DNA of 64,000 nucleotides from CAVYHJ01 sp963768165 [NCBI: uncultured bacterium] (GTDB lineage: Bacteria > UBP4 > UBA4092): contig CAVYHJ010000026.1 in assembly GCA_963768165.1 (NCBI GenBank), positions 496,001-560,000 on the forward strand, given 5' to 3'. The notes beneath the pieces are model-generated. The model saw only the letters and a list, made by a program, of their open reading frames with translations, did no database searches and was not told where the DNA came from. The position numbers were made by a program, and so were the translations under genes. Positions 3,361 through 55,719 of the stretch are shown here, piece by piece. Numbering within the stretch: position 1 is the first letter of the stretch; each line of letters begins with the position of its first letter.

Positions 3361-3966
3361 ATGACCATAACTCATTCGACACTAGCATTAGAAAAACGGA
3401 GTATTCGGGCAAAAATACTCTATCAACGAAAATTGTTATCCCTCGAAGAAGTCTTGAAACGAAGCCGAATAATTGAGAAAAGATTAATTTCTCTACCGGA
3501 ATATAAGTCCGCGAAACGAATTATGTTTTATGTCTCTAAACCGGGAGAAGTGGATACCCATAAAATGATTCGGGATTTCTTGCAGAGTAAAAAACACGTG
3601 GTTGTGCCGATTACCAATAAACAGGACAGAAATTTATTTCTCAGTGAAATTGAAAGTTTCCCAGTTGGGTTACACCCTTCGACCTATGGAGTCTTGGAAC
3701 CGGAACTCGGTGACCGCTGTCATTTGTATACCAAAGAGATTGATTTGATTATCGTGCCCGGCGTGGCGTTTGACAGAAATGGTCACCGGCTCGGTCATGG
3801 CGGAGGATATTATGACAGGTTTTTAAAAACCATGAACCCTAAAATCCCGCGAATTGCCCTGGCGTTTGATTTTCAAATATTATCCAAAATTCCCAAAGAA
3901 ATTTGGGATATGCCTGTGAATGGAATTGTCACGGAATCAGAGATGATAAAAACACCGACATCTTAA
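3361..3966 (+). CDS. 5-formyltetrahydrofolate cyclo-ligase
   Basis: Converts 5-formyl-THF to 5,10-methenyl-THF using ATP (folate salvage, cytoplasm). The 201-aa protein matches the usual ~190-200 aa when started at ATG 3361; the open frame upstream to 3229 encodes non-conserved hydrophobic residues. Diagnostic features are the basic N-terminal helix (KRSIRAKILYQRKLL), FYVSKPGEVDTH and the C-terminal signature PGVAFDRNGHRLGHGGGYYDRFL. The Shine-Dalgarno sequence is weak. Followed by a ~137-bp gap with CATTCC-type dispersed repeat sequence and then the restriction-modification gene. Confidence 0.93.
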   Translation: MTITHSTLALEKRSIRAKILYQRKLLSLEEVLKRSRIIEKRLISLPEYKSAKRIMFYVSKPGEVDTHKMIRDFLQSKKHVVVPITNKQDRNLFLSEIESFPVGLHPSTYGVLEPELGDRCHLYTKEIDLIIVPGVAFDRNGHRLGHGGGYYDRFLKTMNPKIPRIALAFDFQILSKIPKEIWDMPVNGIVTESEMIKTPTS

Positions 3967-5469
3967 CCTCTCCCCTACTGTCATTCCCTCGCAAAAAGGA
4001 ATCCATCTTTCTCCTCTCCATCCCGTCATTCCCGGCTCCGACCAAGAATCAGATTTTCTGTCTTGACATTTCCACCCTAATCAATAAAACTATACCTATC
4101 AAAATGTCTGGAATATTGAATACTCCCAAAGAATTAATTGAACTGGTCGAACGCTTTGACCGTAACAAAGATTCCTATATCTCCGGGCAATACAACGAAA
4201 CTCAGGTTCGCCGTGAATTTGTTGACCCGTTCTTTGCCCTGCTGGGTTGGGATATCGAAAATAAACAAGGATTTGCTGAAGCCTATAAAGACGTTATCCA
4301 CGAAGATGCCATCAAGATTGGTACGGAAACCAAAGCCCCGGATTATTGTTTCCGTATTGGGGGAACCCGTAAATTCTTTCTTGAAGCCAAACGCCCGTCT
4401 GTCAATCTCAAAGACGATATCAGTCCCGCGTTCCAACTTCGCCGTTATGCGTGGTCTGCCAAACTTCCTTTAAGTATCCTCACCGACTTTAAAGAATTTG
4501 TTGTCTATGATACTCGTATAAAACCTTCTCAAACCGATAAACCCTCTATAGGTCGGATTATGTATCTTACTTATCAGGAATATATTGATAAATGGGAGCA
4601 ACTCGTCAACACCTTTTCCAAAGATGCCATTCAAAAAGGCTCTTTTGATAAATATGCCGAAACCAATAAAGGGAAAAAAGGCACGACAGAAGTTGACACC
4701 GCTTTTCTGGAAGAAATTGAATTATGGCGCAAGACCTTGGCACAAAATCTGGCATTGCGGAATCCCAAACTTACTCAACGGGAATTGAATTTCTCTGTCC
4801 AACGCACTCTTGACCGTATTATTTTCCTGAGAATCTGTGAAGACCGCGGTATTGAACCTTATGGCAAACTCCGGGAACTCTTAAAATGGGAAGACGTTTA
4901 TTCCGAACTCTGTAACTACTTTCAACGTGCCGATGAACGTTACAACTCCGGCTTGTTTCATTTCACTAAAGAAAAAGACCGCAGTGAATCTCCTGATGAA
5001 TTAACTTTACACCTAAAAATTGAAGACAAACTCCTCAAGGACATTATCAAGAAACTCTATTACCCGGAACCCTACGCCTTTTCAGTTATACCGGCGGATA
5101 TTCTGGGTCAGATTTACGAACAATTTCTTGGCAAAGTGATTCATCTTACCGATGGACATCGTGCTGTTGTGGAAGATAAACCTGAAGTCAAAAAAGCGGG
5201 GGGCGTTTATTACACCCCTACCTATATTGTAGATTACATCGTGAAAAACACCGTCGGCAATCTCTTGGGCGATAATTTGGTTGAAAATAATTCTCAACTA
5301 GAAACTAGGAACTCGAAACTAGAAACTGCGCATACAAGATATTCCCCAAAACAAGTCTCCAAGTTGCGCATTTTAGACCCCGCCTGTGGTTCCGGTTCAT
5401 TCCTTCTGGGAGCCTATCAATATCTCCTCGATTGGCATTTGAAATATTACACCACTCCTCCCAATTCTT

Positions 5470-5493
5470 CCCCCTCCTTAATTAAGGAGGGGG
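5470..5493. repeat. 24-bp perfect palindrome inside the RM coding region
   Basis: Perfect inverted repeat with arms CCCCCTCCTTAA and TTAAGGAGGGGG, followed by a G-rich tract. It is translated in frame (…PSLIKEGARG…) between methyltransferase motif I and the next conserved helix, where related enzymes would not be expected to carry it. It looks like a small palindromic element tolerated inside a gene. Confidence 0.7.
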
Positions 5494-6797
5494 CAAGGGG
5501 GTGGTCTGATTGGTCTCAACAATGGGCATCCGGTAAATCTCCCGCGATCCATCAAACCGCCACAGGCGGATGGCGTTTGACCACTCAGGAACGAAAACGC
5601 ATTCTTCTCAATAATATTTATGGCGTGGACATTGACACCCAAGCCGTCGAAGTCACCAAACTCTCCCTCCTCCTCAAAGTCTTGGAAGGAGAAAGTGAAC
5701 TCCGTCTTTTCCACAATGAACGTGCCCTCCCTGACCTCGGCAAAAATATCAAATGCGGTAACTCCCTCATCGGTCCCAATTTCTATGACAATCAACAATT
5801 ACTCCTCATTGATGAAGAAGAAAAATACCGCATAAATGTCTTTGACTGGAACATTGAATTCCCCGACATTATCAAATCAGGTGGCTTTGACGCCATCATC
5901 GGCAATCCACCTTATGTTAGACAAGAATCCTTAGGTGACTTAAAAGATTATTTTGAAAGTAGATATAAAGTTTTCCATGGAATTGCAGACCTATACGTTT
6001 ACTTTATAGAAAAGGCTGTTTCATTACTCAAAAAAGATGGTTATTTTAGCTTTATTGTAGCCAATAAATGGTTCAGGACTAATTACGGTGAACCACTTAG
6101 AAATTGGTTGAAAAAACAGAACATCGAAGAAATTATTGATTTTGGTGATCTTCCAGTCTTTCAACAAGCAACGACATATCCTTGTATACTACGAATAAGA
6201 AATAACCCATCTGTTGATAAATTTCTAATGACGCAAGTTAAATCTCTTGATTTTAAAAATCTTTATGAATATGTGGCTAAGAATCAATTTACTGTTAAGA
6301 ACATGGCATTAGATGATAAGGGATGGATATTATCTAATGAAAATATTCATGCATTACTTAATAAATTAAAACTATCAGGTATTAGTTTGGAAAAGTATAC
6401 AGGTGGAAATATATTTAGAGGGATAATAACTGGATTAAATGAAGCTTTTGTTATTGATAATGAAACTAAGAATAAACTTATTGCGATTGATAAAAAAAGT
6501 AAGGAACTGATTAAACCATTTCTTATTGGACGTGAAATAAAGAAATATCAATTCCCTTCAAATAATCTATATCTCATTTTTATACCAAACGGTTGGTCAT
6601 ATTCAAAAACAAATGGAAAAGGTAATGCTTGGTTATGGTTTGAAAAGCTTTACCCGGCAATTGCGAAGCATCTTTTGGGTTATTCAGATTTAGCTAAGAA
6701 GCGTTGTGATCAAGGAGAATATTGGTGGTGACCTGACCCCCGAAAACTAGCCCACCTGAAATGTTAGTATATCTTCACAAAAGAAGGAGATATACCC

Positions 6798-7064
6798 ATG
6801 CAAAAGAAACGGCATAAAGTGGAAGAGATTTTTCGGATACTAAGAGAAGTGGAAGGAGGGCAGACCATTGCCCAAGTTTGTCAGGTTCATAATATTACGG
6901 AACAGACCTACTACCGGTGGAAGCAGAAGTATGGAGGGATGACTTTGTCGGAAGCGCAACAGTTAAAAGCCTTGGAAGAGGAGAACAACCGGTTAAAGAA
7001 GAAAGTCGCAGACTTATTGTTGGAGAATGATTTAATCAAGGAGATTAACTCAAAAAAGTGGTAG
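6798..7064 (+). CDS. IS3-family transposase OrfA
   Basis: 88 aa. N-terminal helix-turn-helix (KVEEIFRILREVEGGQTIAQVCQVHNITEQTYYRW) for terminal-repeat binding, then a leucine-zipper-like coiled coil (LKALEEENNRLKKKVADLLLENDLI) for multimerisation. The ribosome-binding site AAGGAG lies just before the start. It ends six bases into orfB, and the slippery A_AAA_AAG (7052-7058) sits immediately before its stop. It most resembles the IS407/IS51-type branch of IS3. Confidence 0.92.
   Translation: MQKKRHKVEEIFRILREVEGGQTIAQVCQVHNITEQTYYRWKQKYGGMTLSEAQQLKALEEENNRLKKKVADLLLENDLIKEINSKKW
7052..7058 (+). other. Programmed -1 frameshift heptamer of the IS3-family element
   Basis: A_AAA_AAG in the OrfA frame at the orfA/orfB overlap. 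A -1 slip would give the OrfAB fusion transposase used by this family. Placement relative to both frames was checked by counting codons. Confidence 0.8.
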
Positions 7065-7975
7065 GCCCGTCCCCGAAGAGGAAGATGATCCAAGTGTTGG
7101 TGGAAGAGAAAGGGTGTTCGGTACGTCGGGCCTGTCAGGTGATGCAGTTTGGGAGAAGTAGTTATCGGTATAAAGTCCTGGAGAATAAAATAGAGGGACG
7201 GCTTAAGAAACGGATAGAAACCTTGTCCCGTCGGTATCCTCGGTATGGATATCGGCGGATCACGGCAGTACTGCAGAAGGCAGGATGGAAGATCAATAAA
7301 AAAAGAGTTCAACGATTAATGCGAATCATGGGTTTACAAGTCAAGCAGAAAGCTAGAAAACGGCGGAGAGTAGGCTTATCCACGGGGGTTCGCCGAAAAG
7401 CGGAATATCCGAATCATGTCTGGAGTTGGGATATGATTCAAGACCAGACCGCAGATGGACGTATGTTGAAGTGTTTAACCCTCTTGGATGAATATACTCG
7501 GGAAAGCTTACGGATTCGAGTGGGTCGGTATCTCACTTCCGGGGAGGTGTTGAGGGAACTGCAAGAGGTCATCAAGGAATATGGAGTCCCTGAACATATT
7601 CGTAGTGACAACGGACCGGAGTTTATCGCTAATGCCATTCAAGTCTGGTTACAAAAAAAACAGATTACCACTCTGTATATTTCTCCTGGAGAACCTTGGG
7701 AAAATCCGTATATCGAAAGTTTTCACGGAAAGTTCCGAGATGAATGTTTAAATCGAGAATTATTTACCAGTCTGTTGGAAGCTCAAATCATCATTGAAGA
7801 TTGGAGAAAGGAGTACAATCAAACCCGACCCCATAGTTCCTTGGCTTATTTGACACCCAAGGAATTTAAAGAAATCTGTGGCAACTCTTCGGTCGCTACG
7901 CTCCCTACGAGTTGCCACAATCATCATAACTTGGAGTATACTAACATTACGAGTGGTACAGTAATCGGGGGCTAG
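7058..7975 (+). CDS. IS3-family transposase OrfB (DDE integrase core)
   Basis: 305 aa from a GTG at 7058, in the -1 frame relative to orfA; normally made as an OrfAB fusion. An HTH_21-like region (YPRYGYRRITAVLQ, KRVQRLMRIMGL) precedes the rve integrase core. Catalytic acidic residues are visible: D in WSWDMIQDQT, D in IRSDNGPEF and E in PYIESFHGKFRDE. The C-terminal HSSLAYLTPKEF motif is present. Near the 3' end an 11-bp inverted repeat (7877-7887/7909-7919, TGTGGCAACTC) is translated as part of the protein tail. Confidence 0.93.
   Translation: MVGPSPKRKMIQVLVEEKGCSVRRACQVMQFGRSSYRYKVLENKIEGRLKKRIETLSRRYPRYGYRRITAVLQKAGWKINKKRVQRLMRIMGLQVKQKARKRRRVGLSTGVRRKAEYPNHVWSWDMIQDQTADGRMLKCLTLLDEYTRESLRIRVGRYLTSGEVLRELQEVIKEYGVPEHIRSDNGPEFIANAIQVWLQKKQITTLYISPGEPWENPYIESFHGKFRDECLNRELFTSLLEAQIIIEDWRKEYNQTRPHSSLAYLTPKEFKEICGNSSVATLPTSCHNHHNLEYTNITSGTVIGG
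7877..7919. repeat. 11-bp inverted repeat within the end of OrfB
   Basis: TGTGGCAACTC at 7877-7887 pairs with GAGTTGCCACA at 7909-7919 around a loop containing CGGTCGCTACGCTCCCTACG. It is translated near the OrfB C-terminus, beyond the conserved integrase core. It could be a transcription stop for the element or a captured palindromic repeat. Confidence 0.6.
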
Positions 7976-7982
7976 TCAGTGG

Positions 7983-8465
7983 GAACTAAGACCCTGTGAT
8001 TATTATTCAGAATTTGAAAAACCTAAAATTGTTTATCCCAATATTTGCAAAAAACCAGAATTCTCTTATGACGAAAAAGGACTATATACAAATCAGAAGT
8101 GTTATATTATTCCTACAGAAGATAAATATTTATTGGGAGTATTAAATAGTTCTCTTACATATTTTCTATTTCGTTCTATCCTACCTAAGCTAAGAGGAGA
8201 TTTCTATGAGCCAAGTTATGTTTATTTTAAAGATTTCCCAATTTGTAAAATAAGTAAGTCTGATACTCGCTATAAAAAATTGGTTAAATTAGTTGATCAG
8301 ATATTGGAATTAAATCAACAATTACCCAAAACCAAAACACCCCATGACAAAGAATCCCTCCAACGCCAAATAACCGCCACCGATAACCAAATTGACCAAC
8401 TGGTCTATGAATTGTATGATTTAACAGATGGAGAAATTAAAATTGTTGAAGAAAATACTGTTTAA
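7983..8465 (+). pseudogene. 3' part of the type IIG RM gene (C-terminal target-recognition tail)
   Basis: Continues the frame broken at 6728: ELRPCDYYSEFEKPKIVYPNI, then LNSSLTYFLFRSILPKLRGDFYEPSYVYFKDFPI, typical of the C-terminus of Eco57I-type enzymes, and a final helical segment ending with TDNQIDQLVYELYDLTDGE. With the IS present it could only be made separately from an internal start (for example TTG 8133), which would not yield a complete enzyme. Its last 38 bp overlap the next gene in another frame. Confidence 0.88.
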
Positions 8466-10038
8466 TCCAAAATCCTTTATCGTTTATGTAAGTATTCCAT
8501 TTTTAGTTCTGTCGACAATTTTCTTTCTTTTGGGTAAATCTGATTTGAAGGATTACCGTAATACTTTAATTGGACTAAATGTTACAATAGCAATTTTTGC
8601 TATAAACTTTTCATTTGTTGAATATCAATTTTCCCCTTATCGAATATTAATAAAATCATCAGGTAGAATCCATCGTTGGTTTTCAATTGTTTTACTCTTA
8701 ATATCTTTATTACCACTTCTATTTACCATTTATGAAACTAATTATTTAGGCAGAGTTGCTTTAACTTTATTGCCGATAACCGCTTACGGATCTGTATTGT
8801 TGGGGATTTTGGTATCTAGAGAATGTAGAGGGAAGACATTATTAGAAAAATGTATTTCCAGTAAGAAATTTAAAAGTTATCTTAAATTATTTATAAGTGA
8901 TTTGGATAAAGAAATTTATAATGAAAAACAGATAAAGATGAAAAATATCAAAGAAACTCCTATGCATGAACTTACTTCTAACACTCTTTATCCGTTTATA
9001 AGTGATGATGATCCTATTGAATTTGCAATAAGTCTTGCTTATACAGCACTATTAAATAATGATTTGATTACTTTTAATGCTGTAATTGAAAAACTTTTAT
9101 CTCTTTATTCTGAAATACGCAATTTTCGAATATTAAGTACACTTTCGGAGGATTATGAAATTAGGTCATGGTTAAATAATTATATTACTCAAGGTTTTGA
9201 AAGAATTTTCAGATTTGCAATTGCAAATGACAAAAGTTTAAGCTTTCTTGTAAAAATACAGGAACAATTTGCTTTATATATTAGAAATGAATCAAAAAAT
9301 CAAAAACAAACGGATAAAATTGTAACTGATATATTTAAAATGATGACTTATTTGAGTCAATATTTTTTAGAAAAGGATTTATATGGTCCTGCTTTAATTT
9401 CAATAAATATTGCCAGGCAGGTAACCCAGGAAGGTATAGACAATCCTAAAAAAGACAAAAGTGATGGTAAAAATGATCTCCAATTTGAATATAATCTTCA
9501 AATTTATCCAATAATGATTAAAAATATAGGATCAAAAGCCATTAGTTTAAAAAATAATAATTTTCTTTATAGATGTCTCGATACACTTGGATGGTTAGGA
9601 TGTTCTGCAGTAAAAAAGAAACAATACTATATTACTAAAGGATGTCTTGCAAGTTTAACTCAATTGGGAAGAGAGTCCAGATCAGTTGGTTTGAGATGCT
9701 TTGATACGCATTGTGGATTGAGACCTGAAGATCATGTACAAGAACGATTAGATTGGATTAGAAGTTGGATTATTTCTACAAAAGAAAGTAATGGAGAATA
9801 CTTTGCATTTGATGAACTTATTGAAGCGTATCAGAGATTACTTGGTTTTGAAATTGAGGTTTCGTTTGAAAAGATTAAGGAACAAGAAAGAATGAGCCTT
9901 ACAATAACTAAGAATCCACATATATTTACTATGAAAGTTGATGGAATAACTCGTACAATTGATTATTCAGATAATCAAGTTACTGATGAAATTGAACTCT
10001 ATCCTAGTGGAAGTATGATAAGAAAAACTGTTATGTAA
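8428..10038 (+). CDS. AT-rich membrane protein of unknown function downstream of the RM gene
   Basis: 536 aa. Four hydrophobic segments lie in the first 130 residues (about 17-36, 47-64, 85-105 and 110-130), followed by ~400 soluble, mostly helical, Lys/Asn/Ile-rich residues. I recognise no family. The start (ATG GAG AAA TTA) lies inside the last 38 bp of the RM gene, so the two were probably co-translated. Base composition is clearly more AT-rich than the flanking housekeeping genes, which suggests horizontal acquisition. An accessory or defence role is inference from position only. Confidence 0.75.
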   Translation: MEKLKLLKKILFNPKSFIVYVSIPFLVLSTIFFLLGKSDLKDYRNTLIGLNVTIAIFAINFSFVEYQFSPYRILIKSSGRIHRWFSIVLLLISLLPLLFTIYETNYLGRVALTLLPITAYGSVLLGILVSRECRGKTLLEKCISSKKFKSYLKLFISDLDKEIYNEKQIKMKNIKETPMHELTSNTLYPFISDDDPIEFAISLAYTALLNNDLITFNAVIEKLLSLYSEIRNFRILSTLSEDYEIRSWLNNYITQGFERIFRFAIANDKSLSFLVKIQEQFALYIRNESKNQKQTDKIVTDIFKMMTYLSQYFLEKDLYGPALISINIARQVTQEGIDNPKKDKSDGKNDLQFEYNLQIYPIMIKNIGSKAISLKNNNFLYRCLDTLGWLGCSAVKKKQYYITKGCLASLTQLGRESRSVGLRCFDTHCGLRPEDHVQERLDWIRSWIISTKESNGEYFAFDELIEAYQRLLGFEIEVSFEKIKEQERMSLTITKNPHIFTMKVDGITRTIDYSDNQVTDEIELYPSGSMIRKTVM

Positions 10039-10054
10039 GAAATGAACACCTCTA

Positions 10055-10103
10055 GATTTCCCGACGCCTTCCAACGAAATAATTCTCTTCCAAATCTCAA
10101 ATC
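10055..10103. repeat. Direct repeat copy 1 flanking the poly-sigma4 gene
   Basis: A block starting GATTTCCCGACGCCTTCCAA is repeated with a few mismatches at 13102-13150, just beyond the poly-sigma4 gene. An additional exact 21-bp block (GAAATCTTCC...) is at 10163-10183 and again at 13171-13191. Copy 1 contains an extra ~58-bp insert at 10105-10162 that resembles the last bases of the window (63943-64000). Confidence 0.75.
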
Positions 10104-10191
10104 TTCAATAAAATCAATGAACTAATAATTCTTCCGCGAAAGCAGAAAAACTCCGACTGGCTGAAATCTTCCATCTAAAATCCCCTCCCCC

Positions 10192-10269
10192 GCCCACCCA
10201 ATTGACCAACGGGTCTATGAATTGTATGATGTAACAGAAAAAGAAATTAAGATTGTGCAAGGGAAATAA
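10192..10269 (+). pseudogene. Decayed copy of the 3' end of a type IIG RM gene
   Basis: ATTGACCAAC.GGTCTATGAATTGTATGAT.TAACAGA and following bases match the authentic RM gene end at ~8391-8462 almost base for base. It is truncated upstream and ends in TAA just 11 bp before the poly-sigma4 start. It has no function as a protein. It marks an earlier RM gene or a duplication at this spot, and the same remnant precedes the second sigma4-like gene. Confidence 0.8.
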
Positions 10270-10280
10270 AAAGGAATCCA

Positions 10281-13097
10281 ATGCGCACAGGTGTTCTTCA
10301 AAATAGGAAATACCAAGCAGAAAAAAGAATAGTAGAAAATTACCTCGCTTCCGGTCTCCCCTTATCCGATGTACTAATAAAACGACAGGAAAAAATTATA
10401 AGGTTGCGCTACGGTTTGGATTCCCTAGAACCTTTATCATTAGATGAGATTGCAAATCATTATAAGGGTTGGACGAGTAGCATTTGTAAAACAATAAAAA
10501 GAAGCCTTCGATCACTAAAGCACCCTGAAACAGCAATATCACCTGCCATATCGAAAACGGCTGTTAAAAAACACTATAGGAAGTATCTAAAAGAAAAAAT
10601 GATTTTGGATAATTTCCTCCAATCCGGTCATTCTCTGGATAGCATTTTAACTCCGAAACAAGAAAAAATCATCCGTCTCCGTTTTGCAGTAGATCGTCCA
10701 GATCCACTTGCTATAAAAGAAATTGCAAATAAGTTTCATATCACTGTACCCGTAGTCCGTAAAATTATCAGATTTGGTTTTCGTAGTCTGAGAAATCCTG
10801 AGATTCCTTTCAAGACAACCGAAAAAAGTAAATCATTTAAAATAGGAAAGGTCATTATTGAACGATTTTTTCAAAAGGGCTATTCCCTATCCGGGATATT
10901 GAATAAACGAGAAGAAAAAATAATCCGATTACGTTATGGTTTGGATTCAGGAAAACCTTTAACTTTTAAAGATATCGGGAAAATAGTGCATCTTCCTGAT
11001 CGAAGAGTCCTTGCAACGATTATTAGATGTTTGAGGCAAATAGAAAATCCCGATCTGCCTTATAAGCTTTGTTTTCGCACCAAAGCTTACCAAGATGGGA
11101 AAAAGGTGGTGGAGAACTATTTGCAATCAGGTCATCCTTTATCGAACATTTTAAATAAAAGAGAAGAAAAAATTCTTCGTTTACGGTATGGCTTGGATAC
11201 CGGTAAACCTTCGTCTTATAATAGTATTGCAAAACAATTTAAACGAACAAATGCGGCTATTCGCTCTAGTATAATTAGAATTCTGAGGCAATTAAAAAAT
11301 CCTGAAATTCCTCTAACAAGAGACAATCAAAAGAAGTGGGTACGGGAAGAAGGGAAAAGGATTATTGAGTCTTACCTCCAAACGGGACGTGCCCTATCTG
11401 AAATATTGAATGAACGGGATGAGAAAATCCTTAGGCTAAAATTTGGAATGGATAACCGGAAACCTTTAACTAATATGGGAATTGGGAATCTTTTCCATAT
11501 TTCTAGAACTAATGTTATATCAAGTGTTCAAAGGAGTCTATGGCGATTACAAAATCCGGATACTCTTCCCAAAACTTTTGAACAAAGTAAGGGCTATCTG
11601 GAAGGAAAAAAGATAGTGGATGACTATTTGCAATCCGGTCATAATTTATCCGAAGTGTTAAATGAAGAAGAAAAAAATATAGTTCGGTTACGATATGGAC
11701 TGGATACTGGAAAACCATTACCTCAAACTAGAATTGCACAGCAGGTTCAAATACATAAAGGTTCCATCCCCTATATTCTATTTAGAAGTCTCAGGCAATT
11801 AAAAAATCCTGGGATTCCAGCAACCAGGGCTTTTCGAAATAGATGGGCTCAGGAAGAAGCCAAAAAGATTATTAATTCTTTCCTTCAAACGGGTCGTACC
11901 TTATCCGAAGTGGTAAATAAACGGGATGAACAAATTATTCGGCTTCGTTTTGGCTTGGATACCGGGGAAATTTTATCTTTAAAAGAGATTGGGAATAAAT
12001 TTAAGATTCCCGATAATACGGTATCTGAAATTATTACCAGAAACCTTTGGCGTTTAAAACATCCAGAAAAAGTTTTCTCCATGCCCGAACGGAATAAATT
12101 CTTTCAGGAACAAAAGAAATTTCTCGAAGAATACTTGAAACCAGGACGTTCATTATCTAATATACTAAAACCAAGACAGGTAAAAATTCTTCAGTTACGC
12201 TTTGGCTTGGATGGGAAAAAACCTTTAGCCCAAAAAACAATTGCGGGTATTTATAAAGTTGCGAGAGGTACAATCGGAAAAGTTATTAGAGTAAGTCTGG
12301 AAAAATTAAATTATCAGAGCACTATAAAACTTCGAGAAAAAGCAAACCCGCTGTATCGTAATGGGAAAAAAGTAATAGAACATTTCCTTCAAACAGGACT
12401 TTCTTTATCGGATATTTTAAATAAAAAACAAGAAAGATTCATTAAACTACGCTATGGGCTGGATTGGCGGAGGCCTTTAACCTTGTCCGAGATTTCTGAA
12501 ATTTGTGAAATAAGCACTGAAAATATCTATTCTTCTGTAGTTGCAAGTCTTCAAAAGCTAAAAAGGTATGGTTATATTAATACCTCTGAATTGACTGCCA
12601 AATTTGATCGAGAAGGGAAAGAAATAGTGGATAAATATCTCAAATCTGGACACCCTTTATCTAAAGTATTGACGGATCGACAGGAAAAGATTATCCGATT
12701 ACACTATGGCTTGGATTCAAAAGAGCCGCGTTCCTTACAGTATATTGCTTCTCTCTACCAAATCTCCAAAAGTACTGTTTGCGATTTTTTAGTTACAGGG
12801 CTGCGAAAATTAAAATATCCAGATGAGGCTGGGGAAAATATATTATTAAACAAGACCTACCAAAAGGGGAAAAAGATACTGGAGATATATTTGAAAACTG
12901 GTCGTCCACTATCGGATGTATTGAATGACCGGGAGAAAAGAGTAATCCAACTTCGCTTTGGTTTGGACTCTGGAAAACCTATGGTTCTAAAACAGATTGC
13001 ATCTAAATTTAGGGTTTCCCCCTCGAATGTCAGTTATCTTATAAATCATAGTATTCAAAAACTAAAATCCGAGTTTTCTACGTTGGCAATGAAATGA
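10281..13097 (+). CDS. Protein of 11 tandem sigma-70 region-4-like repeats (poly-sigma4)
   Basis: 938 aa divided end to end into 11 repeats of ~85 residues. Each repeat has a helix (GKKIVENYLQSGH-LSDIL) and then the sigma-4 signature: N.REEKIIRLRYGLDSGKPL, helix-turn-helix residues (eIANKF.IS...V..II) and a final SLRKLKNPE. In classical sigma factors this matches regions 4.1/4.2 (…RFGLD…TLEEIG…RIRQIE..ALRKLRHP), which read the -35 element and bind the beta flap. No region 2 or 3 is present, so it should not act as an ordinary sigma factor. The HTH residues differ among repeats, while the LRYGLD core is kept. It is preceded by an RM-tail remnant and flanked by direct repeats. Possible roles are modular DNA binding, RNA polymerase capture or anti-phage control; none is shown. 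Confidence 0.85.
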   Translation: MRTGVLQNRKYQAEKRIVENYLASGLPLSDVLIKRQEKIIRLRYGLDSLEPLSLDEIANHYKGWTSSICKTIKRSLRSLKHPETAISPAISKTAVKKHYRKYLKEKMILDNFLQSGHSLDSILTPKQEKIIRLRFAVDRPDPLAIKEIANKFHITVPVVRKIIRFGFRSLRNPEIPFKTTEKSKSFKIGKVIIERFFQKGYSLSGILNKREEKIIRLRYGLDSGKPLTFKDIGKIVHLPDRRVLATIIRCLRQIENPDLPYKLCFRTKAYQDGKKVVENYLQSGHPLSNILNKREEKILRLRYGLDTGKPSSYNSIAKQFKRTNAAIRSSIIRILRQLKNPEIPLTRDNQKKWVREEGKRIIESYLQTGRALSEILNERDEKILRLKFGMDNRKPLTNMGIGNLFHISRTNVISSVQRSLWRLQNPDTLPKTFEQSKGYLEGKKIVDDYLQSGHNLSEVLNEEEKNIVRLRYGLDTGKPLPQTRIAQQVQIHKGSIPYILFRSLRQLKNPGIPATRAFRNRWAQEEAKKIINSFLQTGRTLSEVVNKRDEQIIRLRFGLDTGEILSLKEIGNKFKIPDNTVSEIITRNLWRLKHPEKVFSMPERNKFFQEQKKFLEEYLKPGRSLSNILKPRQVKILQLRFGLDGKKPLAQKTIAGIYKVARGTIGKVIRVSLEKLNYQSTIKLREKANPLYRNGKKVIEHFLQTGLSLSDILNKKQERFIKLRYGLDWRRPLTLSEISEICEISTENIYSSVVASLQKLKRYGYINTSELTAKFDREGKEIVDKYLKSGHPLSKVLTDRQEKIIRLHYGLDSKEPRSLQYIASLYQISKSTVCDFLVTGLRKLKYPDEAGENILLNKTYQKGKKILEIYLKTGRPLSDVLNDREKRVIQLRFGLDSGKPMVLKQIASKFRVSPSNVSYLINHSIQKLKSEFSTLAMK

Positions 13098-13101
13098 ATT
13101 T

Positions 13102-13150
13102 GATTTCCCAGCGCCTTCCAACAGAATAATTCTCTTCTAAATCATAAATC
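13102..13150. repeat. Direct repeat copy 2 flanking the poly-sigma4 gene
   Basis: Matches 10055-10103 with a few mismatches, and is followed at 13171-13191 by the exact 21-bp block also found at 10163-10183. Together they bracket the RM-tail remnant and the poly-sigma4 gene. Confidence 0.75.
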
Positions 13151-13213
13151 CATGTCCTTGAGCGAAGGATGAAATCTTCCATCTAAAATCCATTCCCAAT
13201 ACTAAAATAATTT

Positions 13214-13243
13214 TTGTAGAATCTATAAAATATAAGTTATAGT
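13214..13243 (+). promoter_or_regulatory. Candidate sigma70-type promoter for the GHMP kinase gene
   Basis: TTGTAG, an 18-bp AT-rich spacer and TATAGT, about 50 bp upstream of the start codon. Recognised by eye only. Confidence 0.3.
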
Positions 13244-13295
13244 AAATGGTCGGAAGGAACAAGAAGATTGTGGAAAGAGACGGAGGTTAATATTT

Positions 13296-14315
13296 ATGCG
13301 CATTATCGGCGCACGGGTTCCCGCGAGAATTGATTTTGTCGGGGGAGGAGCTGATTGTCCACCCTACTCGACCGAATATGGCGGAGCGGTGGTTAATGCC
13401 GGAATTACTCGATATATTTATGTTACTTTGATTCTGGGTGAACCGAAAAATAGAATCAAGATTGTTTCACGCGATTTCAACGTTTCAGTCACCAGCAGGG
13501 ATATTTCTGAATTACAATTCAACGGCAAATTAGATTTACTGAAAGCCGCTGTCAAGAGATTTGGACCGAAAACCAGATTTACCATCATTACCGATACGGA
13601 ATTACCGCCGCAAAGCGGGTTGGGCGGGTCGGCAGCAGTCACGGTGGGAGTAATTGGTGTGTTGACCTATGCCAGGGGATTTCGGTACTCCCCAAGCAAA
13701 TTAGCAGAATTGGCGTTTGAAGTCGAACGGAAAGATTTGGGATTAAGCGGGGGGAAACAAGATCAATATGGAACGGCATTGGGCGGGCTGAATTACTTAG
13801 AGTTTCATGATCCGGAAGTGAAAGCTGAATCACTTTTGAAGATTTCACCGGCAACGTTATTGGAATTGGAGAAAAATTTATTATTGATATATACCGGCAC
13901 GGTGCATCTTTCCGAAAATATTCATGATGAAATTTATAAATCTTACTATGAACCGCATAGCACTACGAAGAAAGCGATGCATAATTTGACCAAAGCGGCT
14001 AAACAGGCACGCGAGGCGCTCATGAAGGGAGACTTAAATCAATTTGCGAACTTATTAAATGTGAATTGGGCGAATCACAAGTTATTACATTCGAGTTGTA
14101 CCAACCAACGGTTGGAAAAAGTCATTCGTACGGGATTGAAATATGGCGCGATGGGTGCTAAAGTTTGCGGTGCCGGCGGCGGGGGATGTATTGTTTTTCT
14201 TTGCAAAGATGGTATGAAACGAAAAGTGCAAATGGCATTGGAGAAACTTAATTGTATCCCATTGGATTTTAAGTTTGATACATCGGGAATCGTAGTGTAT
14301 GAATTCAAAAAATGA
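13296..14315 (+). CDS. GHMP-family sugar kinase (heptose-7-phosphate kinase/fucokinase-like)
   Basis: 339 aa, full-length GHMP kinase. N-terminal motif ARVPARIDFVGGGADCPPY is typical of the HddA/FKP-like branch. The ATP-binding motif 2 is PPQSGLGGSAAVTV (~residues 107-120), and motif 3 near the C-terminus is KVCGAGGGGCIVFL. EVERKDLGLSGGKQDQYG is the substrate-side helix of this branch. It phosphorylates a sugar with ATP in the cytoplasm; the exact sugar (D-glycero-D-manno-heptose 7-phosphate, fucose or another) cannot be read from the sequence. A GGAGG ribosome-binding site precedes ATG 13296. No heptose-pathway partners are adjacent. Confidence 0.85.
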   Translation: MRIIGARVPARIDFVGGGADCPPYSTEYGGAVVNAGITRYIYVTLILGEPKNRIKIVSRDFNVSVTSRDISELQFNGKLDLLKAAVKRFGPKTRFTIITDTELPPQSGLGGSAAVTVGVIGVLTYARGFRYSPSKLAELAFEVERKDLGLSGGKQDQYGTALGGLNYLEFHDPEVKAESLLKISPATLLELEKNLLLIYTGTVHLSENIHDEIYKSYYEPHSTTKKAMHNLTKAAKQAREALMKGDLNQFANLLNVNWANHKLLHSSCTNQRLEKVIRTGLKYGAMGAKVCGAGGGGCIVFLCKDGMKRKVQMALEKLNCIPLDFKFDTSGIVVYEFKK

Positions 14316-30300: not shown

Positions 30301-32184
30301 ACATTGAATGGGGGTAGTTGGTCATATACGTCCACCGGTTCCGGACTGGGAAATATCTTAATCACCCTGAACGCTGGTGCGAATGGGTGGACTATCAGTT
30401 CGACCGATTCGATTACGTTGCTGTTTGGCAATGATTCTATCCGAGTGTATCTCCCTCAGCTTTCGTTGTACGAAAGCCAAGTACGATACTGGGCGGCCTT
30501 GGACGGTAGTATTTATTACTCAACACCTGGCCCGACAGGAATATATGAAGATGCCTGGTATGCCATGGAATATGACAGTAGCGGATTAGTCCGTTCCGCC
30601 TATAGTGCCGGGGGACGCAGTGCGTCAGTAGATAAAGGCTCGGTCAAGGTGACCACCATTAACAGTACCACCTATCGCTATACCACCATGGCGTCCTTAG
30701 GAAATACCAATACCAACGGGACATCAGATAATAGTTCGACCTATCGCCTTATCCCTGCGACTTTGAGTACCAGTACTATTGACCCGATTGGACGATTGGA
30801 TATTGGCTACCACTACAACGGGAATGTGGTATATACTATAGATATGGTGACTGCCTTTATATACCAACCATCGGGTCGGTTGTATACCTATTCCCCGTAC
30901 ACTGATTATTTTGATGATACATATCAGAATGCCCCCTATCCTAATTACAAGAATGATATTGAATTACGGAAATCTATTTCGGGGAAATATAATTCAATGT
31001 CTTTGAATCCCACAGAGATTTTAACAATGACCGGTATTGGACCTCTTGTAAATTCCAGTATTCCTACCAGCCGGAATTACATCGGGTTGGGGTATCATAT
31101 CTACAATACTCCCATCCTGGCAGCATTTGATGAAATATCCTCTCATCCCTATTCGGAGTGGGATGGTGACTTGACTTATTCATTAGGACCGTATTTTAAT
31201 TATTCCGGTTTGGCGGCGTCCCCGACAGGACAGGTATTTTCCATGTTGCAAGGGTTTAATACTTATCAGGTTAGTTACGATAATTATACGATCATGGAAT
31301 TTATGTATATTTACCGTTACGATGATAGTTCCAACTCGTGGACCAAGATTGTTACTCTTGAGACCACGGAGTATGAACCGGGTGGTCTTACAATTCAAGG
31401 TGCAGACATCGCCGTAGATACCGCCAATCTCTGGATCACTGTGTCCTCTATTGGCAGTCCCTATAATTTTATTGGAGTAACTTTGTTACCACTCAACACC
31501 TTGCCTCAGACAATTAATTTGGGTTCTTTTACACCAGTTCAATATGAAACTACTTATGCTTATCCTGTAAAAATAACCTATGATGCTTCCACTGGCTGGG
31601 GACGGATTCTCTATAATGATCAGGATGACTCCAATAATATGCATGCGATGGGTGTTAATATTGTAGCAGGTTCTCCGCACTTGGCTCGTGACACTGTAGC
31701 CGCTCTAAATGCAGTAGGTGGTGGAATTGACCCATATAATTATGAGATTGTATATAATCCGAATGATCCAACAGGTGGCATATTAAGGGCTTATGCCGTA
31801 TATAATATTAATGATAATACGGAATATTCCCATTTAGATGCATCTGATTCACTGCATGATCTTTGGAGTTCTTACTCAAACACTTTTGCGGACGATTACG
31901 CCTATGGTAGACAGAACGTCACATATAGATATGATGGTTCGGCTCTTGTCGCTTGGTCAAGTTCCAGGGATGATGTTCCCTCTGAAGGCGGATATAGTGA
32001 CGGGTTTATGCATACCAATGCCGGAGGAATTCCAATCTTTTTTAATGATGGTGGGTTTTATCTGGATGTGAAAACCAATACAATCAACCATCGGGATATT
32101 CTAGCAACATGGCATGAATTTACCGATCCGGCTAATACTAATGATTTCTCAGGAGTCGTGGTATGTCAGGAACTATATCCATAA
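27319..32184 (+). CDS. Giant secreted beta-helix-type protein (array gene A)
   Basis: 1621 aa. Signal peptide at ~1-25 (LLIFLLIFSFYGLTCFA). A beta-rich N-terminal region is followed (~330-950) by right-handed beta-helix-like repeats rich in N, G and T (…ENNIIRLCSVADVWINNG…NNLILGPAAYGIYGYNTT…). Next comes a segment SVDKGSVKVTT...STIDPIGRLDIGYHYNG, also found in the two D genes, and a C-terminal module (YNPNDPTGG...AYGRQNVTYR...LVAWSSSRDD...HRDILATWHE...CQELYP) that is repeated through the array. Presumably extracellular or surface-exposed. Ribosome-binding site GGGAGG. Its last 22 bp encode the start of the next gene in another frame. No enzymatic motif seen. Confidence 0.88.
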   Translation: MNHRFCVTLLIFLLIFSFYGLTCFADTPTPGTNAVTEVVSGRNQNTRVWQTTHIENAVDLVTGLPTGTQNTTYPIYYERADGLCYQDTANNWQVSVESIQSTQDGTYQALQGPYQVKFTGSMSASFPVTYTANGDILRMGLRSIGFYNMQTNTLQTLQVVSQSYPVLKGNTLTYPGVFPGIDVQYQYLRGSFEQRLILQNNSSLPSPAIFNMDSTVYLVSITEIDTSSVSCSITNSAGESLTNSFLSGENQSLYFTDSSTGNTICQFVVSQAFDSQNSGLPLNMYKQLYQADGHLYLLEGVPFSWVQSSQYPITLDYQTLTNTTIASNEVWKSGNTYYLSGPFTVGSPWSLAIEGGTVIKFSEGAEIVVQTASKIIAKGDKFNYIMFTSANDNSVGATISGYSTATPAPGDYTTAIYFQPTSSTASWIEYCKIAYAQYGLKIQTQLNNPVENNIIRLCSVADVWINNGSSNGVTLLNNLILGPAAYGIYGYNTTTTAYINALNNTVDGVDTSIYAYATISTGTYLSCKNNLITNGAFGLYAGNSTFFGTHLYNKFYDVATPWFGVIKTTGENTIQTGSLPVYSSSPNGSYYLNHNLTMSETFLGDSAASVYGLDTKTTETAILILSDITNSPTWSLVERDTYNDTKSLNGCEYIGYHYDPVDVIIGNSASNYSIAVSGNGNTLTIDSGVVVSFYRDSTDTGGELNNEATLTAIGQPGNEIQFTSIFATGSLHAMPLRGGLDSNDYFAIVLSPTSNPASNIQYCQFSYAQYGLDEEASLNIDKPIQNNIFKNNICGIYFDSSSAIIANVVNNLFIDNGYGIDLVVAGSQPPIPTMTNYLQSNTFYGNGTGVLLANEDSLTLRLENNLFVGNYIGVTNSEGACTVETRNNLYWDNGQNTNGVPLNTTGGDNADITGSNPMLVHQTQLSSTTFLSSTTHDGFYLAQNSGDASRFPLQISSVSGISGSFANTPPNGVKITVSSYTNGLSGSVQLGYATTLNGGSWSYTSTGSGLGNILITLNAGANGWTISSTDSITLLFGNDSIRVYLPQLSLYESQVRYWAALDGSIYYSTPGPTGIYEDAWYAMEYDSSGLVRSAYSAGGRSASVDKGSVKVTTINSTTYRYTTMASLGNTNTNGTSDNSSTYRLIPATLSTSTIDPIGRLDIGYHYNGNVVYTIDMVTAFIYQPSGRLYTYSPYTDYFDDTYQNAPYPNYKNDIELRKSISGKYNSMSLNPTEILTMTGIGPLVNSSIPTSRNYIGLGYHIYNTPILAAFDEISSHPYSEWDGDLTYSLGPYFNYSGLAASPTGQVFSMLQGFNTYQVSYDNYTIMEFMYIYRYDDSSNSWTKIVTLETTEYEPGGLTIQGADIAVDTANLWITVSSIGSPYNFIGVTLLPLNTLPQTINLGSFTPVQYETTYAYPVKITYDASTGWGRILYNDQDDSNNMHAMGVNIVAGSPHLARDTVAALNAVGGGIDPYNYEIVYNPNDPTGGILRAYAVYNINDNTEYSHLDASDSLHDLWSSYSNTFADDYAYGRQNVTYRYDGSALVAWSSSRDDVPSEGGYSDGFMHTNAGGIPIFFNDGGFYLDVKTNTINHRDILATWHEFTDPANTNDFSGVVVCQELYP

Positions 32185-33269
32185 ATAGGTTTATCCAAAT
32201 ATGTTTATTATTGATTGTATATCTCTTGGGCTGGAGTTCTTCTCCAGCCCGGGAGATGTTATTGTTTGCTTATAATGCAGGTTATGAGTTTTACTGCTTG
32301 CAATTATTACCGACCGGGCAATTGGTGACTACAGGGCAAGCAGTAGCCGTGGGTAATGATCATACTTTTGGATTTGCAGTCAGTCCCGATCAAAGATATA
32401 TTTGGTCGGGATATTCAGATTCAACATCTCAAGGGATACATCAATATCAAGTTTCGCCAAGTGGTCAGGTTTCAACAACAGGACGTCTTGTATCGTTATC
32501 AAGTGCTCCAGATGATATTATGTTCACCCCTAATGGACAATTGCTAATAGCTTACGGAGCACCTATTTTTCGTGTTAATGCCGACAGTAGCATTCAGAGT
32601 ACAAATAATGTATATTCAGGTGGGGTGTTAAACATTAGCCCTCGAGGAGATATTAATTATACCAAACCTCCTTCTTATGCTGATTCTTTCGAGATTGACT
32701 ATATTAACTATGCCTCTGCGGTTATTATAACTTTGGAAATAATAACTACCATACCTAATTACTCCGAATTACAAGCCATCTATCGTCCCGCGGGTGATTA
32801 TATTGCTTTTACTTATTTTGGGGGGTATCCCAGCGGGGTGGAAGTACATCCTGTATTGTCCAATGGAATAGTGGATACGACTCAAACATGGGATTATGGT
32901 CATATTGGAGGATCTTATCTGGATATTACTCCCGATGGGAATAATATCTATGCCAGCGGGATTACTCATTTATCCTGGTCAGCCAAGAGTTCTATGTTTA
33001 TTGATGTTGGAATTACAACATCATTGAGTGTCCTTCAGCTTAAAGTTTCTCCAGATGGGAAGTTTCTGGTTGTTGTTCCAGGAAATCAAACTACTATAAA
33101 GACTTTTGCCATTCAAACGGATGGGAGTTTGGTAGATACGGGATATACTTTTGATTATGGGAGTACATTCGGTGCTTTTATTCCTGCTGACTGTAGACTC
33201 ATCTTTGACTGGACACCCTTGCCTACCGGAGTTCCCTATGAGTTGTGGAACCAGTTTGATGATAAATAA
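32163..33269 (+). CDS. Secreted beta-propeller protein B1
   Basis: 368 aa. A hydrophobic leader (ICLLLIVYLLGWSSSPA), the invariant REMLLF and then a seven-bladed-propeller/lactonase-like pattern: FAVSPDQRYIWSGYSDS, FTPNGQLLI, LDITPDGNNIYASG and LKVSPDGKFLVVVPGNQTT. It ends GVPYELWNQFDDK. The start ATG lies inside the 3' end of gene A (out of frame), implying translational coupling. The 3' half is almost identical in DNA to that of B2. Substrate unknown; such propellers often mediate binding. Confidence 0.85.
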   Translation: MSGTISINRFIQICLLLIVYLLGWSSSPAREMLLFAYNAGYEFYCLQLLPTGQLVTTGQAVAVGNDHTFGFAVSPDQRYIWSGYSDSTSQGIHQYQVSPSGQVSTTGRLVSLSSAPDDIMFTPNGQLLIAYGAPIFRVNADSSIQSTNNVYSGGVLNISPRGDINYTKPPSYADSFEIDYINYASAVIITLEIITTIPNYSELQAIYRPAGDYIAFTYFGGYPSGVEVHPVLSNGIVDTTQTWDYGHIGGSYLDITPDGNNIYASGITHLSWSAKSSMFIDVGITTSLSVLQLKVSPDGKFLVVVPGNQTTIKTFAIQTDGSLVDTGYTFDYGSTFGAFIPADCRLIFDWTPLPTGVPYELWNQFDDK

Positions 33270-33705
33270 TGGTTATGCGATTGTGTATAATCCGAATGAC
33301 CCGACAGGCGGAACAGAGAGAGCCTATATCGCCTATAATATTCTGGATAATACCTATTATTCCCATTTGGATGCCTCCAATTCCTTGTATGACTTATGGA
33401 GTTCGTATTCCACAATATTTGCGGATGACTATGCTTATGGGAGACAGAACGTCACCTATAGATTTGATGGTTCGGCTCTTGTCGCTTGGTCAAGTTCCAG
33501 GGATGATCTATCATCCGACGACGGATTTATGCATACCAACGCCGGAGGAATTCCAGAATTTTTCAGTGACGGGGGATTCTACCTGGATGTAAAAACCAAT
33601 GCAATAAACCATCGGGATATTCTTGCTACATGGCATGAGTTTACTGATCCGAGTAATGGCAATGACTTTTCAGGAGTAGTGGTGTGTCAAGAGTTGTATC
33701 CTTAA
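33259..33705 (+). CDS. Cassette C1: 148-aa remnant of the gene A C-terminal module
   Basis: Begins MINNGYAIVYNPNDPTGG and ends SGVVVCQELYP, matching the last ~145 residues of gene A. No signal peptide. The start ATGATAAATAA overlaps the stop of B1, and the last 22 bp encode the GTG start of B2. It may be translated for coupling, or be a decayed fragment retained because it carries the next gene's start. Confidence 0.7.
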   Translation: MINNGYAIVYNPNDPTGGTERAYIAYNILDNTYYSHLDASNSLYDLWSSYSTIFADDYAYGRQNVTYRFDGSALVAWSSSRDDLSSDDGFMHTNAGGIPEFFSDGGFYLDVKTNAINHRDILATWHEFTDPSNGNDFSGVVVCQELYP

Positions 33706-34790: not shown

Positions 34791-34929
34791 CGATGGCGGG
34801 TTTTTCTTGGATGTGAAAACCAATGCGATCAATCATCGGGACATCTTCTCCTCATGGCATGAATGGACAAATGTCAGCGGTTCCAACGACTTTTCAGGAG
34901 CGGTATTGTGTCAGGAACTTTATCCATAA
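34780..34929 (+). CDS. Cassette C2: 49-aa remnant of the gene A C-terminus
   Basis: MINNDGGFFLDVKTNAINHRDIFSSWHEW...VLCQELYP: only the final ~45 residues of the module remain. It starts in the overlap with the B2 stop and ends over the B3 start. Too short to fold as the full module; probably kept for translational coupling. Confidence 0.6.
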   Translation: MINNDGGFFLDVKTNAINHRDIFSSWHEWTNVSGSNDFSGAVLCQELYP

Positions 34930-38819: not shown

Positions 38820-38846
38820 TTTCTTGCAAAAGGACGCAGTGCGTCG

Positions 38847-40289: not shown

Positions 40290-40316
40290 TTAAATGTTGT
40301 CCCGTGACGAACGTAG

Positions 40317-40322: not shown

Positions 40323-40340
40323 GTATCGAGAGGAAAGAAG

Positions 40341-41965: not shown

Positions 41966-41995
41966 TAAAAAAATGGTAAAACATGACGAAAGTAG

Positions 41996-54757: not shown

Positions 54758-54864
54758 CTTATCGCCTAGACCCTCTATTTAATTTTCTCATTCAACCTAA
54801 CATTTTACCATATCCCCACATTTTCTCACAAAAAGAACTTACACTTTCCCCAAAGCTACCCCCC

Positions 54865-54945
54865 CCATAACAAAGAACCGCTCCTCACAAAATTCAAACC
54901 ACCGACCACCAAATTGACCAATTGGCTTATGAATTGTATGATATT
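54865..54945 (+). pseudogene. Second decayed copy of a type IIG RM gene 3' end
   Basis: CCCATAACAAAGAA..CTC and AAATTGACCAATTGGCTTATGAATTGTATGAT align with the RM gene end at ~8340-8430. Small deletions shift the frame, so it is not coding. It lies directly before the second sigma4-like gene, as the other remnant (10192-10269) does before the first. Confidence 0.78.
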
Positions 54946-54963
54946 AATAAAAAAAGGAGAGAA

Positions 54964-55719
54964 ATGAAAAAAGGTTGTGCCATTGTATCCAAGTCTTTTC
55001 TAGAAGACAAAAAAGTGATCGATTTTTATCTCCGGTCAGGTCATTCCTTATCCGATATATTTAATAAACGCCAGGAGAAAATCATCCGGTTACGTTTTGG
55101 ATTGGATGGGGGAAAACCCTTGCCCTTGATTGCTATCGGGGATCAATTTCAGACTACCGTGCAAAGTATCCGTGGGTCCCTTCTCCGGTATTTCCGACAA
55201 TTGAAACACCCCGATGTTCCTTTAATGAGAACGTTACAAAACAAGAAACGCTATCAAGATGGAAAAATAATTATTGATTCTTTTTTCAAAAAAGGCCTTT
55301 CCTTGTCCGAGATATTAATCCAACGCCATGAGAAAGTTATCCGGTTACACTTTGGACTGGATTCGGGAAAACCCATGACGATTCAGTCTATCGCAAATAA
55401 ATTTCAGTTAACCAAAGGTGAAATTCGATTAATCATCTTTGCAAGCCTAAAAAAATTGAAACATCCGGAAAACTATAAAGGGTTATCCTTTAAAAGTAAA
55501 CGTTATAAAGAAAGAAAAAAGATTCTTGATGCTTATATAAAAACCGGCCGTCCCTTGTCGAAGGTACTCAATGAACGCCAGGAAAAAATCGTCCGGCTGC
55601 GCTTTGGATTGAATTCCCAAAAACCCATGACTCTTCAGGCCATCGCGAATAAATTTCAAATGACAAAAGAAAGAATTCGCCAGATTGTTGAACTGAGTAT
55701 AAAAAAATTGGCCTTGTGA
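54964..55719 (+). CDS. Three-repeat sigma-70 region-4-like protein (short poly-sigma4)
   Basis: 251 aa from ATG 54964 (AAAAGGAGAG upstream). Three ~83-residue repeats of the same kind as in the 938-aa protein: DFYLRSGHSLSDIFNKRQEKIIRLRFGLDGGKPL, then a HTH-like segment and RQLKHPD. The third repeat carries MTKERIRQIVELSIKKL, close to the canonical sigma 4.2 RERIRQIE motif. No region 2. A decayed RM-gene tail lies just upstream. Probably DNA- or RNA-polymerase-binding; role unknown. Confidence 0.83.
   Translation: MKKGCAIVSKSFLEDKKVIDFYLRSGHSLSDIFNKRQEKIIRLRFGLDGGKPLPLIAIGDQFQTTVQSIRGSLLRYFRQLKHPDVPLMRTLQNKKRYQDGKIIIDSFFKKGLSLSEILIQRHEKVIRLHFGLDSGKPMTIQSIANKFQLTKGEIRLIIFASLKKLKHPENYKGLSFKSKRYKERKKILDAYIKTGRPLSKVLNERQEKIVRLRFGLNSQKPMTLQAIANKFQMTKERIRQIVELSIKKLAL

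What the first reader, a model, noticed from the sequence alone, without database searches (positions are those of the whole stretch)
10281..13097. A 938-aa protein built only of 11 sigma-70 region-4-like repeats
Every ~85 residues the sigma-4 core (EKIIRLRYGLD...HTH...SLRKLKNPE) returns, 11 times, with an added N-terminal helix (YLQSGHxLSDIL). No sigma region 2, 3 or anti-sigma domain is visible. Sigma factors carry one region 4; a tandem array is not a standard architecture I know. The scaffold is conserved while the HTH residues vary between repeats. That pattern would suit a modular DNA-reading protein, a multivalent trap for RNA polymerase flap domains, or a phage-transcription blocker.
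Basis: partly seen in the sequence, partly recalled or inferred. Interest (0 to 1): 0.88.

Follow-up and report, generated by a model that had tools for sequence, protein, structure and literature searches.

The report
Eleven-repeat sigma-factor region-4 array protein
A bacterial gene encodes a protein made of eleven copies of the promoter-reading end of a sigma factor and nothing else; a second, three-copy gene lies nearby, and the repeats keep their frame while their DNA-reading parts differ, so the protein probably grips DNA at many points.

Summary
ORF 10281-13097 (938 aa, gene A) is 11 head-to-tail units of about 84 aa, each a region-4 domain of the RpoD/SigA type plus an added N-terminal helix. 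No sigma region 2 or 3 or anti-sigma domain was listed.

Both genes start just after a relic of the 3' end of a type IIG restriction-modification gene that holds a promoter-like TTGACC-17-TATGAT.

The frame is under purifying selection (omega 0.24); the helix-turn-helix changes faster (0.79). Residues that read the -35 box in sigma70 are among the most variable exposed positions; only unit B3 is near canonical.

No other multi-unit relative was found in the searches I could run.

Best reading: a multivalent DNA-binding protein built from RpoD region 4 with diversified heads (0.5); RNA polymerase flap trap 0.2. No binding or expression is shown. New architecture, known domain.

The parts
10281..13097 (+). 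gene A: 938-aa array of 11 sigma region-4 units (pI 10.1, net charge about +89 at pH 7)
10284..10535 (+). unit A1
10557..10808 (+). unit A2
10809..11060 (+). unit A3
11061..11312 (+). unit A4
11316..11567 (+). unit A5
11568..11819 (+). unit A6
11823..12074 (+). unit A7
12075..12326 (+). unit A8
12327..12578 (+). unit A9
12579..12830 (+). unit A10
12831..13082 (+). unit A11
11094..11489 (+). first copy of a duplicated two-unit block (most of A4-A5), 70.7% identical in DNA to 11601-11996
11601..11996 (+). second copy of the duplicated two-unit block (most of A6-A7)
54964..55719 (+). gene B: 251-aa array of 3 units; start chosen at the ATG 4 nt after AGGAG (the mechanical ORF starts at 54922, TTG)
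54970..55221 (+). unit B1
55225..55476 (+). unit B2
55477..55716 (+). unit B3, the only unit with a near-canonical -35 reading helix (T-K-E-R-I-R-Q)
10178..10256 (+). relic of a type IIG R-M 3' end upstream of gene A (82% identical over 79 nt to 8368-8446)
10202..10230 (+). promoter-like TTGACC-17-TATGAT inside the relic; -10 box ends 50 nt before the ATG of A
54841..54947 (+). relic of the same R-M 3' end upstream of gene B (76% over 108 aligned columns to 8318-8424)
54914..54942 (+). promoter-like TTGACC-17-TATGAT; -10 box ends 21 nt before the ATG of B; homology to the R-M tail falls off just past it
3903..6731 (+). type IIG restriction-methyltransferase (Eco57I type), N-terminal part; apparently split from its C-terminus by a transposase gene at 7058-7975
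7965..8465 (+). C-terminal part of the R-M gene (TaqI_C domain), with the copy of the tail that is also found before both arrays

Best explanation
Genes A and B encode poly-sigma4 proteins: tandem copies of region 4 of a primary sigma factor, each with an extra N-terminal helix, and no other domain that I could find. I think they act as multivalent DNA-binding proteins. The repeated sigma4 frame is kept, each unit presents its own recognition helix, and many weak, differing contacts add up along the DNA. They would then coat, compact or silence promoter-like or AT-rich DNA, or bridge several -35-like sites, and so compete with RNA polymerase. Unit B3, which keeps most of the -35 reading residues, could bind TTGAC-like sites, perhaps including the TTGACC box before both genes (autorepression). 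Shown: the repeats, the predicted fold of units A4-A6, the selection contrast, the second gene and the shared upstream relic. Inferred: DNA binding, what it does to transcription, and autoregulation.
For: Fold: single unit A4 pLDDT 88.6, pTM 0.77; SigA region 4 bound to -35 DNA (3n97) matched at TM 0.90 by target length, rmsd 0.9; VIA Z about 8-9 to region 4 and to YlxM-type proteins. Basic: pI 10.1, each unit of A +4 to +12. The frame is under purifying selection while the HTH changes faster: omega 0.24 (CI 0.13-0.40) against 0.79 (CI 0.33-1.72) between the copies of the duplicated block; non-synonymous contrast p = 9e-7, synonymous p = 1; HTH pN exceeds scaffold pN in 54 of 55 unit pairs of gene A (pairs not independent). 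The five reading positions have mean entropy 2.79 bits against 1.98 for 24 other exposed positions, p = 0.0014. R554 and R562, which by my recollection contact the DNA backbone, are R in 11 of 14 units each. pTM 0.45 with pLDDT 87 for three units suggests loosely connected beads.
Against: No binding data. High variability and omega near 1 at the HTH also fit loss of DNA reading, and the upper part of the omega interval does not show selection for change. Two other exposed positions (592 and 575) are as variable as the reading positions. Reading positions are not enriched in K/R (24% against 31% at other exposed positions), and several units carry D, E, P or G there. Promoter-like hits in 7900-13400 are no more frequent than in shuffles (20 found, 22.9 expected), so the promoter claim rests on the shared position only. 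Foldseek E-values are all above 0.001.
Confidence: 0.5

Rival explanations
1. RNA polymerase flap trap: the array binds the beta-flap tip through the conserved 4.1 surface, many polymerases per molecule, and keeps sigma region 4 off. It would lower or redirect -35-dependent transcription, as AsiA does by a different route.
For: The 4.1 motif (L-R-F/Y-G-L-D) is the best-kept part of the 14 units, while 13 of 14 keep at most one of the five reading residues. A review passage places the flap contact on H1, H2 and H5 of region 4 (PMC2988021, passages read).
Against: No H5-like helix follows 4.2 in the three-unit model, which goes from the recognition helix straight to the next unit's N-terminal helix; that helix might stand in for H5, which was not tested. 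A11 and B3 end soon after 4.2. 4.1 is also structural core, so its conservation does not need a flap. The aromatic at 563 is Y in 6 of 14 units; F563Y weakens AsiA binding in sigma70, and its effect on the flap was not looked up.
Confidence: 0.2
2. Modular sequence reader: each unit reads its own short motif and the array as a whole reads a long composite site, like a TALE made of helix-turn-helix domains.
For: Frame kept, reading helices differ from unit to unit, arrays differ in length (11 against 3 units) and show a two-unit duplication.
Against: Omega in the HTH is not above 1 (0.79, CI 0.33-1.72); no code between residues and bases can be tested with one window; linkers look flexible.
Confidence: 0.13
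3. Regulator tied to type IIG restriction-modification: the array gene was the downstream operon partner of the R-M gene and controlled its expression or acted with it in defence.
For: Both arrays start within about 25 nt of DNA homologous to the R-M 3' end.
Against: The R-M gene of the window is followed by a different gene (8428-10038) and is itself apparently interrupted, and the arrays stand without an R-M gene. PADLOC gives only short pieces: best stretches of 23-62 residues in A (MzaA, Cas11, mad1) and 49 in B (MzaA). The relic may have been kept only as a promoter.
Confidence: 0.1
4. A decaying or selfish repeat gene without a present role.
For: No relative in what could be searched; repeats easily expand.
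Against: 938 codons open; scaffold omega 0.24 between the duplicated blocks; ribosome-binding-site-like AAGGA and AGGAG before the two starts.
Confidence: 0.07

Closest known systems
Region 4 of group-1 sigma factors (RpoD/SigA)
   Same: Residues ~29-82 of the unit match a full region 4: profile, fold of A4, and 4.1 motif L-R-F/Y-G-L-D
   Different: 11 or 3 copies in tandem, added N-terminal helix, regions 2 and 3 not found, 13 of 14 units keep at most one of five reading residues, H5 not seen in the model
YlxM / UPF0122 (PF04297) stand-alone sigma4-like proteins
   Same: N-terminal helix plus sigma4-like HTH; best structural match over 67-68 residues (1xsv, Z 9.2); Pfam UPF0122 passes its cut-off
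   Different: YlxM has one unit and lacks the R-F-G-L-D motif (recalled); the Sigma70_r4 score is far higher (249 against 74 bits) and the NCBIfam YlxM cut-off is not reached
Short phage proteins with region 4 (those on L016, L019, L021)
   Same: A region 4; no region 2 seen by eye in the frames (not scanned with Pfam)
   Different: one unit only
MzaA, described as a sigma factor, of the mzaABCDE defence system (PMC9523054, passages)
   Same: PADLOC and NCBIfam models hit the region-4 part
   Different: whole-protein cut-off not reached (170 against 800 bits)
AsiA, and T4 gp33 (gp33 recalled)
   Same: What the flap-trap rival would work like
   Different: no sequence relation tested; AsiA binds sigma region 4 (PMC2988021, passages), it is not built of it

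Membership tests
sigma-70 family RNA polymerase sigma factor | region 4 domain | tested here: met
   PF04545 E 1.1e-75, 10 stretches
sigma-70 family RNA polymerase sigma factor | region 2 (core binding, -10 recognition) | tested here: not met
   no Sigma70_r2 among the 25 of 30 Pfam families shown; the remaining five are no stronger than E 0.035
sigma-70 family RNA polymerase sigma factor | -35 reading residues kept | tested here: not met
   B3 keeps E585, R586, R588 and Q589 with K at 584; the other 13 of 14 units keep at most one of the five; roles of R584, E585, R588 from PMC2613000 passages, R586 and Q589 added from recall
Sigma70_r4 domain family (as domain, not as sigma factor) | profile match above the curated cut-off and region-4 fold | tested here: met
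   249 bits against 24.1 for A, 83 for B; fold of A4 and A4-A6
YlxM / UPF0122 | curated model score | tested here: inconclusive
   NCBIfam YlxM 71.9 bits against cut-off 80 over 3 stretches; Pfam UPF0122 is over its cut-off (74.3 against 22.7) but far weaker than Sigma70_r4
MZA anti-phage system (MzaA) | full-length MzaA model | tested here: not met
   170 bits against 800
flap-binding transcription inhibitor | binds the RNA polymerase beta flap | not testable with these tools
   needs an interaction assay

The most novel reading that the evidence does not exclude
A new class of modular DNA-reading protein: RpoD region 4 was multiplied into an array in which each unit carries its own recognition helix, the scaffold being fixed and the reading heads free to diversify, with array length changing by block duplication. 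It would be a helix-turn-helix counterpart of TALE arrays, run from a promoter that was once the coding tail of a restriction enzyme.
Probability: 0.13. Interest if true: 0.9.

Novelty: new variant of a known kind. Interest (0 to 1): 0.66.

Why it matters
Region 4 is the -35 reader and flap ligand of bacterial sigma factors, and a sigma factor carries one. A protein in which only region-4 units were found suggests that this domain can leave the sigma factor and be multiplied, and gives a natural set of 14 diverged region-4 units on one frame with which to ask which residues set base preference. If the arrays bind DNA they would be a new type of nucleoid or promoter-silencing protein; if they bind the flap, a multivalent polymerase inhibitor.

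Tried and rejected
Rejected: ordinary sigma factor (no region 2 or 3 listed); a different repeat family (the strongest profile and fold matches are region 4); a phage gene (no multi-unit hit in phages, plasmids or viral contigs). In (298 plasmid records, 20 listed; 51 phage records, 20 listed) only the listed rows were looked at: 39 of these 40 span 159-261 nt of the record, i.e. one region 4. The odd one (H33, 408 nt) was fetched and is an ordinary RpoD fragment with regions 3 and 4. All 12 viral loci have one unit.

Led nowhere: placing the organism (no whole genome is held); a tree of units, mostly unresolved, only A5 with A7 well supported at 98, and only in the tree of whole units (54 in the core tree); promoter scan, at chance level overall; a first tandem pattern with the wrong gap, which found nothing even in the window (corrected in 59); papers. 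Ten searches listed no title on tandem region-4 proteins; one search matched 42 papers, of which 25 were listed and judged by title and start of abstract. The library holds open-licence papers only, so this is weak evidence of absence.

Limits: the unit profile was built from the units it finds, so its E-values are circular; the independent test is Pfam. The core/exposed split and the 43 gene starts were chosen by hand. The duplicated block used for omega is one event, and dS is near saturation for the other pairs. In one search, rows 2 and 18 carry titles without a sigma factor (ribosomal protein with RNA polymerase), 9g33 and WhiA (3hyi) score Z 7.3-7.4, near many sigma rows. PADLOC also gives a Cas11 match to A (E 1.6e-8, 33 bits, no stretch passing on its own), which I take as chance on a repetitive protein. 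Searches of genome collections were two scans, one by peptide words of gene A and one by an exact degenerate pattern, which itself misses 3 of 11 units of A and 1 of 3 of B; diverged relatives could be missed.

Full report
Observation. The ORF at 10281-13097 (+) encodes 938 aa. Pfam gives Sigma70_r4 at E = 1.1e-75 with 10 stretches, and no region 2 or 3 among the 25 of 30 families shown. The protein splits into 11 units; of the ten steps between them the first is 91 residues and the other nine 84 or 85. Units are 27-51% identical to each other (where A5 and A6 were still merged) and 37-52% identical to A4, which includes gene B. The whole protein has pI 10.1 and net charge about +89, and every unit of A is positive, +4 to +12.

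A second gene. A degenerate pattern for one unit hits the window 10 times (0 in 100 shuffles): 8 times in gene A and twice in another ORF. That ORF, best started at the ATG 54964 after AGGAG, gives 251 aa with three units. A profile scan of all six frames finds no further units in the window; one other match has E 0.36.

Fold. AlphaFold of one unit (A4) with the 14-row alignment: pLDDT 88.6, pTM 0.77, helices 8-22, 33-43, 53-60, 64-79. Three units (A4-A6) together: pLDDT 87.4 but pTM 0.45, as expected if the units are loosely joined; this is an inference, since no inter-domain error map was at hand. The full protein was not modelled. Foldseek lists mostly SigA/RpoD chains (4g6d TM 0.77-0.78 by target length; 3n97 0.90 with rmsd 0.9), although no E-value is below 0.001. 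VIA gives Z about 8-9 for region 4 (1ku3, 1rio, 4g6d, 3n97) and 9.2 for the YlxM-type protein 1xsv, which also aligns part of the N-terminal helix; the tool warns that Z under 8 can be common and that helical proteins often score high. A sequence profile of the units finds 58 PDB sequences, all named as primary-type sigma factors (RpoD, SigA, SigB, HrdB), over positions 26-82 only, best E 8e-13. So the domain is region 4 of a primary sigma factor, and the first ~25-28 residues are an addition.

What varies. Aligned to S. aureus SigA with E. coli numbering, 4.1 is well kept: L561 in 14 of 14, R554 and R562 in 11 of 14, F or Y at 563 in all, D566 in 13. In 4.2, five residues read the -35 box or lie beside it (R584, E585, R588 from a review, PMC2613000, passages; R586 and Q589 added from recall). 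B3 keeps four of the five, with K at 584; the other 13 units keep at most one. Mean entropy at these five is 2.79 bits against 1.98 at 24 other exposed positions (permutation p 0.0014; the exposed set was chosen by hand; positions 592 and 575 are as variable). The units A4-A5 and A6-A7 are a duplicated block (70.7% DNA identity over 396 nt). Between the copies omega is 0.24 (95% CI 0.13-0.40) in the scaffold and 0.79 (0.33-1.72) in the HTH; synonymous rates are alike. Of the 55 pairs of units of A, the HTH has the higher non-synonymous divergence in 54 (pairs are not independent). So the protein is under purifying selection as a frame, with the reading surface free or driven to change. Omega is not above 1, so diversifying selection is not shown. 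Against DNA reading: K/R are not enriched at the reading positions (24% against 31% elsewhere).

Upstream. Both array genes start right after DNA homologous to the 3' end of the window's type IIG R-M gene (82% over 79 nt for A; 76% over 108 columns for B; alignment). That R-M gene has its N-part at 3903-6731 (PADLOC REase_MTase_IIG), its TaqI_C part at 7965-8465, and a transposase gene (rve, HTH_21; IS3 type by recall) between; that the element split it is an inference. The shared tail codes Q/P-I-D-Q-x-x-Y-E-L-Y-D and also reads as TTGACC-17-TATGAT at 8392, 10202 and 54914. The -10 box ends 50 nt (A) and 21 nt (B) before the ATG. In B the homology to the R-M tail falls off just past the -10 box (BLAST ends at 54947). 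Of 43 hand-picked gene starts in the window, 7 have a promoter-like match of 10 of 12 or more within 90 nt upstream, including A, B and 8428; the window holds 20 such sites on the + and 19 on the - strand, for which no shuffle control was run. At 9 of 12 such sites are at chance level in 7900-13400. I read this as a coding tail kept as a promoter for the arrays, which remains to be tested.

Distribution. Genome contigs: 85 word matches, none confirmed, and 0 exact pattern matches. Viral contigs: none by gene A or B words, 0 by three patterns, and 12 loci by unit alignment, each with a single unit. Phages and plasmids: none for A; for B only one-domain sigma-like matches in the 40 rows listed. 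The organism could not be identified, and no whole genome is held.

Mechanism. Best supported is a multivalent DNA-binding protein made of region-4 units with differing heads (0.5). The flap trap (0.2) is favoured by the well-kept 4.1 surface but disfavoured by the lack of a visible H5, which a review counts among the flap contacts (PMC2988021, passages). A modular reader (0.13) is the boldest form of the first. The R-M link (0.1) rests on position only.

Novelty. The domain is known; an array of it without any other sigma region is not described in the titles listed by ten searches of an open-licence library (see Tried and rejected). I rate it a new variant of a known kind.

Noticed in passing
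window 3903-8465: Type IIG restriction-methyltransferase apparently interrupted by a transposase gene (7058-7975), leaving an N-part and a TaqI_C part.
   Followed up: partly
window 8428-10038: 536-aa protein with N-terminal hydrophobic stretches, starting inside the R-M tail; only a weak sub-threshold Pfam hit (VMAP-M9, E 0.0013).
   Followed up: no
window 10055-10189 and 13102-13197: Direct repeats on both sides of gene A (49 nt at 86% and 31 nt at 90%); another 47 nt (10101-10147) recurs at 63939-63985 at 83%. May be an intergenic repeat family or traces of how A was inserted.
   Followed up: partly
window 32163-45862: Run of ORFs of which eight are 368-386 aa long; the two of that size that were scanned give weak beta-propeller hits (Lactonase, WD40), two others in the run (38847, 41546) give none. 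Looks like a tandem paralogue cluster.
   Followed up: no
window 59651-63856: 1401-aa protein with weak sub-threshold AAA_16/NPHP3_N hits, possibly a STAND-type NTPase.
   Followed up: no
L016, L019, L021: Viral contigs with short frames (153-170 aa) that carry region 4 and, by eye, no region 2; not scanned with Pfam.
   Followed up: no
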